64,000 bases of DNA from Haemophilus parainfluenzae (GTDB lineage: Bacteria > Pseudomonadota > Gammaproteobacteria > Enterobacterales > Pasteurellaceae), in contig NZ_CP127167.1 of NCBI RefSeq assembly GCF_036288925.1, positions 2,046,001 to 2,110,000 on the forward strand, written 5' to 3'. Below are positions 16,401 to 23,805 of this stretch, piece after piece (within the stretch, counting starts at the first letter, position 1; every line of letters begins with the position of its first letter). The notes below the pieces were generated by a model. That model searched no databases and was not told where the DNA came from. It worked only from the letters and a program-made list of their open reading frames with translations. The position numbers and the translations under genes are program-made.

Positions 16401-16424
16401 TCCTTGTAAAAAATTGGAGATTCC

Positions 16425-16453
16425 TTTACAAATATGCTCTTACGTGCTATTAT
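16425..16453 (+). promoter_or_regulatory. tet(M) promoter
   Basis: TTTACA (16425-16430), 17-base spacer, TATTAT (16448-16453): a good sigma-70-type promoter. It lies upstream of the attenuation leader, so transcription from here must pass the leader hairpins before reaching tet(M). Confidence 0.8.
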
Positions 16454-16484
16454 TTAAGTGACTATTTAAAAGGAGTTAATAAAT

Positions 16485-16508
16485 ATGCGGCAAGGTATTC
16501 TTAAATAA
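16485..16508 (+). CDS. Seven-codon leader ORF upstream of tet(M)
   Basis: ATG CGG CAA GGT ATT CTT AAA TAA, encoding MRQGILK, with AGGAG 9 bases before the start. Its 3' half forms one arm of a long-range inverted repeat (16492-16505 with 16580-16593). Such mini-ORFs belong to the tet(M) leader; whether the peptide itself is made is not known from the sequence. Confidence 0.5.
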   Translation: MRQGILK

Positions 16509-16593
16509 ACTGTCAATTTGATAGCGGGAACAAATAATTAGATGTCCTTTTTTAGGAGGGCTTAGTTTTTTGTACCCAGTTTAAGAATACCTT
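16492..16593 (+). promoter_or_regulatory. Long-range inverted repeat in the tet(M) leader
   Basis: AAGGTATTCTTAAA (16492-16505) is the exact reverse complement of TTTAAGAATACCTT (16580-16593). The pairing would close a large leader RNA structure and overlaps the seven-codon ORF, so ribosome position there could alter folding. This is part of the known Tn916 tet(M) control region; the switching role is inferred. Confidence 0.65.
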
Positions 16594-16629
16594 TATCATG
16601 TGATTCTAAAGTATCCAGAGAATATCTGT

Positions 16630-16716
16630 ATGCTTTGTATACCTATGGTTATGCATAAAAATCCCAGTGATAAAAGTATTTATCACTGGGATTTTTATGC
16701 CCTTTTGGGTTTTTGA
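16630..16716 (+). CDS. tet(M) leader peptide (Tn916 orf12 type)
   Basis: A 28-codon ORF starting MLCIPMVMHKNPSDK and ending in the codons for Ala-Leu-Leu-Gly-Phe just before the tet(M) ribosome-binding site. It spans the terminator hairpin, the arrangement used for transcriptional attenuation of tet(M) in Tn916: when tetracycline lowers charged-tRNA use or slows ribosomes, coupling of ribosome and polymerase allows read-through. From memory the Tn916 peptide has Met at position 4 where this one has Ile. Confidence 0.75.
   Translation: MLCIPMVMHKNPSDKSIYHWDFYALLGF
16653..16700 (+). terminator. tet(M) attenuator hairpin
   Basis: Two perfect complementary arms of 22 bases (16653-16674 and 16679-16700) with an AGTA loop, followed by a T-rich stretch. 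It is inside the orf12 leader peptide gene and immediately upstream of tet(M). This matches the intrinsic terminator described for Tn916 tet(M) regulation. Confidence 0.85.
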
Positions 16717-16731
16717 ATGGAGGAAAATCAC

Positions 16732-18651
16732 ATGAAAATTATTAATATTGGAGTTTTAGCTCATGTTGATGCAGGAAAAACTACCTTAACAGAAAGCTTA
16801 TTATATAACAGTGGAGCGATTACAGAATTAGGAAGCGTGGACAAAGGTACAACGAGGACGGATAATACGCTTTTAGAACGTCAGAGAGGAATTACAATTC
16901 AGACAGGAATAACCTCTTTTCAGTGGGAAAATACGAAGGTGAACATCATAGACACGCCAGGACATATGGATTTCTTAGCAGAAGTATATCGTTCATTATC
17001 AGTTTTAGATGGGGCAATTCTACTGATTTCTGCAAAAGATGGCGTACAAGCACAAACTCGTATATTATTTCATGCACTTAGGAAAATGGGGATTCCCACA
17101 ATCTTTTTTATCAATAAGATTGACCAAAATGGAATTGATTTATCAACGGTTTATCAGGATATTAAAGAGAAACTTTCTGCCGAAATTGTAATCAAACAGA
17201 AGGTAGAACTGTATCCTAATATGTGTGTGACGAACTTTACCGAATCTGAACAATGGGATACGGTAATAGAGGGAAACGATGACCTTTTAGAGAAATATAT
17301 GTCCGGTAAATCATTAGAAGCATTGGAACTCGAACAAGAGGAAAGCATAAGATTTCATAATTGTTCCCTGTTCCCTGTTTATCACGGAAGTGCAAAAAAC
17401 AATATAGGGATTGATAACCTTATAGAAGTGATTACGAATAAATTTTATTCATCAACACATCGAGGTCCGTCTGAACTTTGCGGAAATGTTTTCAAAATTG
17501 AATATTCGGAAAAAAGACAGCGTCTTGCATATATACGTCTTTATAGTGGCGTACTGCATTTGCGAGATTCGGTTAGAGTATCAGAAAAAGAAAAAATAAA
17601 AGTTACAGAAATGTATACTTCAATAAATGGTGAATTATGTAAGATTGATAGAGCTTATTCTGGAGAAATTGTTATTTTGCAAAATGAGTTTTTGAAGTTA
17701 AATAGTGTTCTTGGAGATACAAAACTATTGCCACAGAGAAAAAAGATTGAAAATCCGCACCCTCTACTACAAACAACTGTTGAACCGAGTAAACCTGAAC
17801 AGAGAGAAATGTTGCTTGATGCCCTTTTGGAAATCTCAGATAGTGATCCGCTTCTACGATATTACGTGGATTCTACGACACATGAAATTATACTTTCTTT
17901 CTTAGGGAAAGTACAAATGGAAGTGATTAGTGCACTGTTGCAAGAAAAGTATCATGTGGAGATAGAACTAAAAGAGCCTACAGTCATTTATATGGAGAGA
18001 CCGTTAAAAAATGCAGAATATACCATTCACATCGAAGTGCCGCCAAATCCTTTCTGGGCTTCCATTGGTTTATCTGTATCACCGCTTCCGTTGGGAAGTG
18101 GAATGCAGTATGAGAGCTCGGTTTCTCTTGGATACTTAAATCAATCATTTCAAAATGCAGTTATGGAAGGGATACGCTATGGTTGCGAACAAGGATTATA
18201 TGGTTGGAATGTGACGGATTGTAAAATCTGTTTTAAGTATGGCTTATACTATAGCCCTGTTAGTACCCCAGCAGATTTTCGGATGCTTGCTCCTATTGTA
18301 TTGGAACAAGTCTTAAAAAAAGCTGGAACAGAATTGTTAGAGCCATATCTTAGTTTTAAAATTTATGCGCCACAGGAATATCTTTCACGAGCATACAACG
18401 ATGCTCCTAAATATTGTGCGAACATCGTAGACACTCAATTGAAAAATAATGAGGTCATTCTTAGTGGAGAAATCCCTGCTCGGTGTATTCAAGAATATCG
18501 TAGTGATTTAACTTTCTTTACAAATGGACGTAGTGTTTGTTTAACAGAGTTAAAAGGGTACCATGTTACTACCGGTGAACCTGTTTGCCAGCCCCGTCGT
18601 CCAAATAGTCGGATAGATAAAGTACGATATATGTTCAATAAAATAACTTAG
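16732..18651 (+). CDS. tet(M): Tetracycline resistance ribosomal protection protein Tet(M)
   Basis: EF-G-like GTPase that binds the ribosome and dislodges tetracycline. The frame opens five codons earlier (16717), but GGAGG lies 8 bases before the ATG at 16732, giving the normal 639-residue protein beginning Met-Lys-Ile-Ile-Asn-Ile-Gly. G1 AHVDAGKTT (10-18), G3 DTPGH and G4 Asn-Lys-Ile-Asp are intact and there is no frameshift; the C-terminal Tyr-Met-Phe-Asn-Lys-Ile-Thr end is complete. The sequence agrees closely with the Tn916 family protein from memory. Codon use and lack of uptake signals contrast with the host genes. Expressed from the attenuated leader upstream. Confidence 0.98.
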   Translation: MKIINIGVLAHVDAGKTTLTESLLYNSGAITELGSVDKGTTRTDNTLLERQRGITIQTGITSFQWENTKVNIIDTPGHMDFLAEVYRSLSVLDGAILLISAKDGVQAQTRILFHALRKMGIPTIFFINKIDQNGIDLSTVYQDIKEKLSAEIVIKQKVELYPNMCVTNFTESEQWDTVIEGNDDLLEKYMSGKSLEALELEQEESIRFHNCSLFPVYHGSAKNNIGIDNLIEVITNKFYSSTHRGPSELCGNVFKIEYSEKRQRLAYIRLYSGVLHLRDSVRVSEKEKIKVTEMYTSINGELCKIDRAYSGEIVILQNEFLKLNSVLGDTKLLPQRKKIENPHPLLQTTVEPSKPEQREMLLDALLEISDSDPLLRYYVDSTTHEIILSFLGKVQMEVISALLQEKYHVEIELKEPTVIYMERPLKNAEYTIHIEVPPNPFWASIGLSVSPLPLGSGMQYESSVSLGYLNQSFQNAVMEGIRYGCEQGLYGWNVTDCKICFKYGLYYSPVSTPADFRMLAPIVLEQVLKKAGTELLEPYLSFKIYAPQEYLSRAYNDAPKYCANIVDTQLKNNEVILSGEIPARCIQEYRSDLTFFTNGRSVCLTELKGYHVTTGEPVCQPRRPNSRIDKVRYMFNKIT

Positions 18652-18745
18652 TGTATTTTATGTTGTTATATAAATATGGTTTCTTGTTAAATAAGATGAA
18701 ATATTTTTTAATAAAGATTTGAATTAAAGTGTAAAGGAGGAGATA
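18652..18745. other. Tn916-type spacer downstream of tet(M)
   Basis: AT-rich non-coding sequence between tet(M) and the broken orf6. It ends with AAAGGAGGAG, a ribosome-binding site that served orf6 in the parent transposon. I see no other gene. Confidence 0.5.
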
Positions 18746-18778
18746 GTTATTATAAACTACAAGTGGATATTGTGTGCT
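18746..18778 (+). pseudogene. Remnant of Tn916 orf6 (cysteine-rich KTR protein), 5' end only
   Basis: After a strong GGAGGAG site, codons read Val-Ile-Ile-Asn-Tyr-Lys-Trp-Ile-Leu-Cys, which matches the start of the Tn916 orf6 KTR protein (next residues expected Pro-Val-Cys-Gly). The match then stops abruptly and MEGA-type DNA follows. This marks the Tn916/MEGA join at about 18775. The identification is from memory of a short peptide. Confidence 0.6.
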
Positions 18779-23177: not shown

Positions 23178-23239
23178 TTATATTATCTCCTGCATATTAT
23201 TTTGCTTGAATTTCTATTTTGAATAGCATTCTAGGCAAT

Positions 23240-23283
23240 AAAAAATGCAGGCCAAACCCCACAATGTGGCTTTTGGTCTGCAT
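23240..23283 (-). terminator. mef attenuator hairpin
   Basis: On the minus strand, ATGCAGACCAAAAGCCACA pairs with TGTGG and GGTTTGGCCTGCAT and is followed by TTTTTT. It lies between the leader peptide and mef, and is the expected terminator of macrolide-dependent transcription attenuation. Confidence 0.8.
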
Positions 23284-23444
23284 ACATACAATTTGGAAAC
23301 ATTCATATTAAAGACATAGTTAAATAAAGGTATAGTTAAATAACCAATATCCTCACCGTAACTAATGAATGCTCAATATCGTATAAATAAGCACAACAAA
23401 AAAGCCTATCATCGGGTATAGATTCTGCTTTTTTTATTGCCAGC

Positions 23445-23471
23445 TTATCTTAAACGCATTGAGGCTGTCAT
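23445..23471 (-). CDS. mefL: mef leader peptide MTASMRLR
   Basis: An eight-codon ORF, MTASMRLR, with AGGAGG ten bases before its ATG (complement of 23481-23487). This is the leader known to stall ribosomes with erythromycin-class drugs, through its Arg-Leu-Arg end, and so induce mef/msr(D). All codons are intact, so inducible control is probably preserved in this Gram-negative host. Confidence 0.9.
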   Translation of the reverse strand: MTASMRLR

Positions 23472-23511
23472 AGTTTCGGTTCCTCCTACATCTTTGTTTA
23501 TATCAATTTAT

Positions 23512-23540
23512 AGTATAACACAACAAGATGATATGTTCAA
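23512..23540 (-). promoter_or_regulatory. mef-msr(D) operon promoter
   Basis: On the minus strand TTGAAC (23540-23535), a 17-base spacer and TATACT (23517-23512), about 40 bases upstream of the leader peptide start. Confidence 0.75.
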
Positions 23541-23562
23541 TATAAAAGTTATGGAATGAGAC

Positions 23563-23733
23563 TCATACTTCCAATTCGATGCCAGATTTAAAGGATATGA
23601 CGAAGTTTTCTTCATAGACTGTAACGCTCTGGATTATCTTCCTTAGTAGCAAGCGATTAGCTTTCACAAAATCTTCTGTTTGTAGTTTTAAAAATTCATC
23701 AGGATTTTCTAACTCAACCTCAAAATATTTCAT
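23563..23733 (-). pseudogene. Remnant resembling the C-terminus of a large serine recombinase
   Basis: A 56-codon ORF from an ATG at 23733 with GAGGGA upstream (the frame stays open to 23790). It ends VYEENFVISFKSGIELEV, the beta-strand pattern I associate with the last residues of large serine recombinases, and is preceded by a helical segment rich in Leu, Arg and Lys. No catalytic domain is present. It may be a leftover of the recombinase that once moved part of the island, or a small standalone protein. Confidence 0.4.
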
Positions 23734-23778
23734 TTTACATTCCCTCATTTCATTTATTGATAAATTGAGTTTGCAAAA

Positions 23779-23805
23779 AAGAGTGGACAATTTTTGTCTA
23801 CTCTT
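23779..23805. repeat. 12-base inverted repeat at the right edge of the island
   Basis: AAGAGTGGACAA (23779-23790), TTT, TTGTCTACTCTT (23794-23805); one mismatch between arms. It is the last structured sequence before host-like DNA leading to the tRNA genes. It could be a terminator of the remnant ORF region or a recombination end. Confidence 0.55.

What the first reader, a model, noticed from the sequence alone, without database searches (positions are those of the whole stretch)
16403..23805. tet(M)-MEGA resistance island in a Haemophilus chromosome
The sequence shows an intact tet(M) with Tn916-type leader, fused through a broken orf6/KTR gene to a MEGA-type block with intact mef and msr(D). 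Flanks are host-type (uptake-signal hairpin on the left, tRNA genes on the right). Tet(M), Mef and Msr(D) are known resistance determinants of Gram-positive bacteria; finding all three intact in a Pasteurellaceae genome predicts combined tetracycline and macrolide resistance. The compact form lacks all transfer genes, suggesting a late, deletion-derived or transformation-spread version of a larger element.
Basis: partly seen in the sequence, partly recalled or inferred. Interest (0 to 1): 0.8.

Follow-up and report, generated by a model that had tools for sequence, protein, structure and literature searches.

The report
Known streptococcal resistance-gene fragment
A 7.5 kb piece of a streptococcal mobile element, with intact tetracycline- and macrolide-resistance genes, sits in what appears to be a Haemophilus parainfluenzae chromosome; this gene combination is already described in that species, so the finding is real but ordinary.

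Summary
Window 16402-23861 (7,460 bp) is foreign DNA with intact tet(M), mef(E) and msr(D). In 9 of 10 other same-genus genomes the empty site is visible, and no match to the block is listed in any of the 10. It is a continuous internal piece of a Tn2009-type element (Tn916 with Mega-1 in orf6). The tet(M)-Mega junction is identical in four named Streptococcus genomes; in the three I read around, Tn916 continues on both sides. Here both ends are cut: left just in front of the tet(M) promoter, right inside Mega (about 420 bp lost). int and xis are absent, and a 19.5-kb Tn2009-like query finds nothing else in the genome. The host site is undamaged with no clear target duplication, favouring insertion of a fragment over decay in place. 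tet(M)-MEGA is already published in H. parainfluenzae, with matching phenotypes (PMC6418240, PMC9927455, PMC12540396; passages). The genome also has GyrA F84/Y88, ParC T138/L198 and a chloramphenicol-acetyltransferase-family gene, as in published multiresistant isolates. Already known; low interest.

The parts
15746..16285 (+). host gene left of the insertion (179 aa, lipoprotein-like N terminus), present next to the empty site in 5 of 10 relatives
   Evidence: left flank 95-99% identical in G005, G008 and G010, about 82% in G004 and G007; no Pfam or NCBIfam match; 'lipoprotein-like' is my reading
16372..16401 (+). host USS-type hairpin with T-run (AAGTGCGGT at 16373); last host bases before the insert
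   Evidence: abuts the tRNA-side sequence directly in relatives
16402..16406 (+). 5 bp (CCTTG) at the left junction that match neither the empty site nor the Tn916 copies compared
   Evidence: comparison with L034, L055, L056, L005 and L006, L057, L059 and L060
16407..18779 (+). Tn916-derived segment: tet(M) promoter, leader/attenuator, tet(M), start of orf6
   Evidence: 99.6% to pCF10 (L034), no gaps
16425..16453 (+). tet(M) promoter-like site TTTACA-17-TATTAT, retained
   Evidence: 10 of 12; the scan as a whole found 24 sites against a mean of 31.0 in shuffles, so the match alone proves nothing
16630..16716 (+). tet(M) leader peptide (28 aa) overlapping a perfect 22-bp inverted repeat, 16653-16700
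   Evidence: hairpin z -9.8
16732..18651 (+). tet(M), 639 aa, intact
   Evidence: 99.6% to the pCF10 tet(M)
18773..23861 (.). MEGA (Mega-1 type), right end truncated by about 420 bp
   Evidence: 119-bp mef-msr(D) spacer, the Mega-1 value in PMC4321634
18776..20259 (+). MEGA accessory orfs: pieces of an SOS-polymerase (UvrX/UmuC-like) gene, and a DUF5960 gene
   Evidence: 18780-20376 is 100% identical to L055, L056, L057 and L032
20377..21840 (-). msr(D)/mel, 487 aa, intact
   Evidence: 100% to L055-L057
21960..23177 (-). mef(E) (named Mef(A) by NCBIfam), 405 aa, intact
   Evidence: 1 mismatch to L055-L057
23445..23471 (-). short leader ORF MTASMRLR upstream of mef(E)
   Evidence: one of many short frames listed there; identification as the mef(E) attenuator leader is recalled
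23563..23733 (-). MEGA orf7-type fragment (annotated 'DNA recombinase' in CP138365.1)
   Evidence: no Pfam or NCBIfam match; the orf7 label is my inference from position
23862..24277 (-). host side: tRNA-Gln, tRNA-Gln, tRNA-Leu, tRNA-Met

Best explanation
A 7.46-kb internal fragment of a streptococcal Tn2009-type element (Tn916 with Mega-1 in orf6) was inserted without loss of host bases between a USS-hairpin terminator and a tRNA operon in a Haemophilus (most likely H. parainfluenzae) chromosome. It works as two self-contained resistance modules: tet(M), a ribosome-protection GTPase behind its own promoter and leader attenuator, and mef(E)-msr(D), macrolide efflux plus ABC-F ribosome protection behind its own leader. 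It cannot be expected to move by itself, having no integrase, excisionase, transfer genes or matching ends. It would spread by descent, or by transformation together with host flanks that carry uptake signals. Shown: content, integrity, parent element, cut ends, undamaged empty site. Inferred: resistance of this isolate, the insertion route (illegitimate recombination of an incoming fragment, here or in an ancestor), and genus and species.
For: One gap-free 7,463-bp match to a streptococcal Tn2009-like element, L056. Tn916 continues on both sides of the match in L055, L056 and L057. 18780-20376 and msr(D) are 100% identical to those copies. The empty site is joined directly in 9 of 10 relatives. 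A 19.5-kb Tn2009-like query that includes xis and int finds only this block in the genome. Zero AAGTGCGGT in the block against 42 in the rest of the window. Published isolates with tet(M) and MEGA are resistant to erythromycin, azithromycin and tetracycline.
Against: The 5 bp CCTTG at the left junction are unexplained. The insertion event itself was not observed. Strain, species and phenotype are not told by any search. In the published isolates other changes (L4 A69S) and, in two of four, tet(B) may contribute. tet(M) is only 96-97% identical to the three streptococcal copies read, so none of these is the direct donor. No other strain of the same species with the same junctions could be examined.
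Confidence: 0.9

Rival explanations
1. A complete Tn2009-like element inserted here by Tn916 integrase and later lost both arms by deletion, leaving tet(M)-MEGA.
For: The site is T-rich then A-rich (CGCATTTTTT/ATATAAAA), close to the kind of target that PMC9355037 attributes to Tn916 (passage).
Against: Both deletions would have to stop exactly at the host border. I see no Tn916 terminus and the host bases are intact. No Tn916 remnant elsewhere for the 19.5 kb searched.
Confidence: 0.12
2. An ICE of the ICEHpaHUB5 type carrying tet(M)-MEGA integrated at the nearby tRNA-Leu and was then lost except for the resistance block.
For: PMC9927455 (passages) describes tet(M)-MEGA in an ICE inserted at tRNA-Leu; a tRNA-Leu gene lies at 24111-24195.
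Against: The right junction is 250 bp from the tRNA-Leu, the tRNA side is as in relatives, and nothing but the Tn2009 fragment and 5 bp lies between the host borders.
Confidence: 0.04
3. The 7.46-kb unit with these exact ends is a defined cassette that moves between sites (chromosome, arsR of ICEHpaHUB5).
For: The MEGA in the published ICE is said to be the same as in KJ545575, and it sits in arsR of an ICE rather than at this chromosomal site (passages).
Against: No recombinase gene beyond a fragment, and no inverted or direct terminal repeat pair at the two ends among the repeats listed (capped list). The ends of the published copies could not be read here.
Confidence: 0.1

Closest known systems
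tet(M)-MEGA element of Haemophilus parainfluenzae (AE-2096513/KJ545575; HUB and HUMT isolates)
   Same: tet(M) next to a MEGA with mef(E) and mel/msr(D), in multiresistant H. parainfluenzae (passages)
   Different: I could not read KJ545575 or the original reports, so end points and chromosomal site could not be compared; one published copy lies in arsR of ICEHpaHUB5
Tn2009 (Tn916 with Mega in orf6) of streptococci
   Same: identical tet(M)/orf6/Mega junction and gene order; Mega-1 spacer of 119 bp
   Different: lacks what lies left of the tet(M) promoter and, on the right, about 420 bp of Mega, the rest of orf6, the following orfs, xis and int
Tn7471 in Tn7100 (H. influenzae Hi-228)
   Same: a truncated Mega joined to Tn916 in a Haemophilus genome (passages)
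   Different: Tn7471 keeps the opposite half (Mega plus orf6 to int) and its described gene list has no tet(M); here the tet(M) half is kept and int is lost

Membership tests
tet(M)-MEGA element of Haemophilus | tet(M) adjacent to MEGA with intact mef(E) and msr(D)/mel | tested here: met
tet(M)-MEGA element of Haemophilus | same sequence and ends as KJ545575 | not testable with these tools
   I reached no copy of KJ545575; two original papers are not held
Tn2009 / Tn916 family conjugative transposon | Mega inserted in orf6 downstream of tet(M) | tested here: met
   junction identical to L055, L056 and L057
Tn2009 / Tn916 family conjugative transposon | int and xis present | tested here: not met
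   19.5-kb Tn2009-like query (L056), which includes them, finds only the 7.46-kb block in the genome
Tn2009 / Tn916 family conjugative transposon | conjugation module left of tet(M) | tested here: not met
   left cut falls 51 bp after the conjugal-transfer CDS (orf13, label recalled) of pCF10; the genome was searched only for the about 4.6 kb of that side contained in L056
MEGA (Mega-1) | full 5.5-kb element | tested here: not met
   18773-23861 is 5,089 bp; about 420 bp missing at the right
MEGA (Mega-1) | 119-bp mef(E)-mel spacer | tested here: met
   value from PMC4321634

The most novel reading that the evidence does not exclude
The compact tet(M)-MEGA unit with these exact ends is a Haemophilus-adapted, non-autonomous cassette that has moved intact between the chromosome and ICEHpaHUB-type elements, helped by uptake signals in its host flanks.
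Probability: 0.1. Interest if true: 0.4.

Novelty: already known. Interest (0 to 1): 0.2.

Why it matters
It documents at base level how resistance DNA of streptococcal type can be fixed in a Gram-negative commensal without its transfer machinery. This fits the published view of H. parainfluenzae as a resistance reservoir. It adds junction coordinates that could help to type this lineage; it does not change what is known about the genes.

Tried and rejected
In-place deletion from a full Tn916-type element, and ICE decay at the tRNA-Leu, were considered and disfavoured by the undamaged empty site. A repeat search (20 of 24 direct families and 25 of 45 inverted pairs shown) listed no repeat pair at the two ends of the block. 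One inverted pair (16314-16329 with 23860-23875, 88%) touches the right junction, but its left arm lies 73 bp out in the host flank; I take it for an A+T-rich chance match. A scan of viral contigs for the tet(M)-Mega junction found nothing. No record among plasmids, phages or E. coli genomes has a place covering at least 80% of window 15700-24500. A family-wide search of 140 genomes, the own one included, with the 251-bp junction region matched in full only the own genome; three others gave 22-41-bp matches that I dropped as chance. A search for the large serine recombinase domain PF07508 in the own genome found none. I considered that the insert parts the tRNA operon from the hairpin behind it and lets tRNA transcription run into mef(E)-msr(D). 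The block has its own hairpin with U-run at 23775-23805 on that strand (-10.2 kcal/mol, z -2.9), so I give this little weight; the pattern scan listed neither that hairpin nor the USS hairpin on the minus strand.
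Full report
Observation. The window lies in a single-contig genome of 2,228,071 bp, in which the block is found once; the second match there is the palindrome of the tet(M) leader.

Borders. The genus search covered 11 genomes, the own one included; in the other 10 no match to the block is listed. In 9 of these 10 (not G009) the end of the left flank (the USS hairpin with its T-run, up to window 16401) and the tRNA-side sequence lie directly next to each other. In five of the nine (G004, G005, G007, G008, G010) the left gene is the same as here; in the other four (G001, G002, G003, G006) only the hairpin end matches. 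G010 is masked a little further on. G009 matches only on the tRNA side. The empty site reads CGCATTTTTT/ATATAAAA in G004 (L006); in the window the block sits between these two halves. At the right junction Mega and the host share only TT. At the left, five bases (16402-16406) fit neither the host nor the Tn916 copies compared. I saw no clear target duplication.

What the block is. 16407-18779 is 99.6% identical, without gaps, to Tn916 in pCF10. 18773-23861 is MEGA; it matches Streptococcus agalactiae CP138365.1 at 99.8%. The two parts overlap in the 7 bp TGTGCTG, near the start of orf6, the KTR gene. A scan of the species-representative genome collection for a 26-base junction pattern found it in 4 records, all Streptococcus: HMSC034E03, M334, Marseille-Q0941 and S. 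australis G1. In three of these four genomes I read 19-19.5 kb around it. There Tn916 continues to the left and, after a complete Mega of about 5.5 kb, resumes in orf6 and runs on through xis and int. This is the Tn2009 layout of PMC4321634 (passages). In L056 and L055 the whole block is one match of 7,463 and 7,464 columns at 99.0% and 98.9%, with 0 and 1 gap openings; in L057 it is split by extra DNA in the tet(M) leader. The fourth genome (G140) has a shorter mef-msr(D) spacer.

Segment identities. 18780-20376 and msr(D) are 100% identical to L055-L057; mef(E) has 1 mismatch. tet(M) is only 96.0-96.8% identical to those three but 99.6% to pCF10. So Mega is practically the same sequence, while the tet(M) allele differs, and none of these three is the direct donor. 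The 119-bp mef-msr(D) spacer is the Mega-1 type as defined in PMC4321634.

What is missing. The left cut falls 51 bp after the conjugal-transfer CDS next to tet(M) in pCF10 (the name orf13 is recalled) and keeps the tet(M) promoter-like site (16425-16453) and the leader hairpin. The right cut removes about 420 bp of Mega and with it the rest of orf6, xis and int. A 19.5-kb Tn2009-like stretch (L056; about 4.6 kb left of the block, the block, and about 7.4 kb right of it) used as query finds nothing else in the genome; the far left part of Tn916 was not searched. The block has 0 copies of the 9-base uptake signal AAGTGCGGT; the rest of the window has 42. One copy ends 20 bp left of the junction. 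This fits recent foreign origin, and later transformation with host flanks would be favoured (inference).

How it works. Tet(M) frees the ribosome from tetracycline; Mef(E) and Msr(D) act by efflux and ABC-F ribosome protection against macrolides; both modules are under attenuation leaders (established knowledge, recalled; the leader frames were seen). Four published H. parainfluenzae isolates with mef(E)-MEGA and tet(M) had erythromycin >16, azithromycin >4 and tetracycline >4 mg/L (table passage). Two of these four also carry tet(B), and a ribosomal-protein change (A69S) is listed for all four, so the island is not the sole possible cause.

What is known. PMC6418240 (passages) reports tet(M) upstream of MEGA in H. 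parainfluenzae, citing Endimiani et al. 2017, which I could not read. PMC12540396 (passages and one section) names the tet(M)-MEGA element in two isolates. PMC9927455 (passages) describes it in ICEHpaHUB5, inserted in arsR, in H. parainfluenzae and H. influenzae of one patient. PMC12338148 (one passage) reports one H. parainfluenzae with tetM, msrD and mefA. PMC9355037 (passages) describes Tn7471, with Mega and the int half of Tn916, in H. influenzae; [quoted passage not shown] influenzae and H. parainfluenzae. PMC10928409 (passages) and PMC12959101 (passages) report mef and msr(D) in H. influenzae. The combination is therefore not new.

Lineage. The genome encodes GyrA with F84 and Y88, ParC with S84, T138 and L198, and a CAT-family protein (213-aa open frame, not compared with catS). 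This fits the profile of the two isolates in the table of PMC12540396. Unlike the four isolates of PMC6418240 it has S84 in ParC. Its length differs from the two genomes of PMC12540396 (2,213,506 and 2,155,329 bp), so it is probably another strain. Genus and species are my inference from this profile and the uptake signal (42 AAGTGCGGT against 1 ACAAGCGGT in the window; the assignment of these two cores is recalled); no call named the genome.

Verdict. A real, intact and clinically meaningful block, but a known one. What I add is the base-level ends, the undamaged empty site, and the parent: a Tn2009-type element whose Mega is practically identical to that of Streptococcus genomes.

Noticed in passing
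window 30546-31961 and just upstream (G000:C1:2076546-2077961): gyrA in the same window encodes F84 and Y88, the substitutions reported for multiresistant H. parainfluenzae; parC elsewhere (L063) has S84, T138 and L198.
   Followed up: yes
L061 (G000:C1:1756282-1756887, minus): A chloramphenicol acetyltransferase-family gene (213 aa open frame), possibly the catS of published isolates; not compared with catS itself.
   Followed up: partly
window 16402-16406: Five bases (CCTTG) at the left junction without a source; TTCCTT recurs about 20 bp further on, so local template switching is possible.
   Followed up: partly
L033 1978-3393 compared with window 18776-19592: In a Streptococcus suis phage record the place of MEGA's small orfs is held by a full UvrX-like SOS polymerase gene, of which MEGA seems to keep only pieces.
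   Followed up: partly
window 16732-18651: The tet(M) allele is 99.6% identical to the pCF10 allele but only 96-97% to tet(M) in the three streptococcal elements with the same Mega, pointing to tet(M) exchange within this element type.
   Followed up: partly
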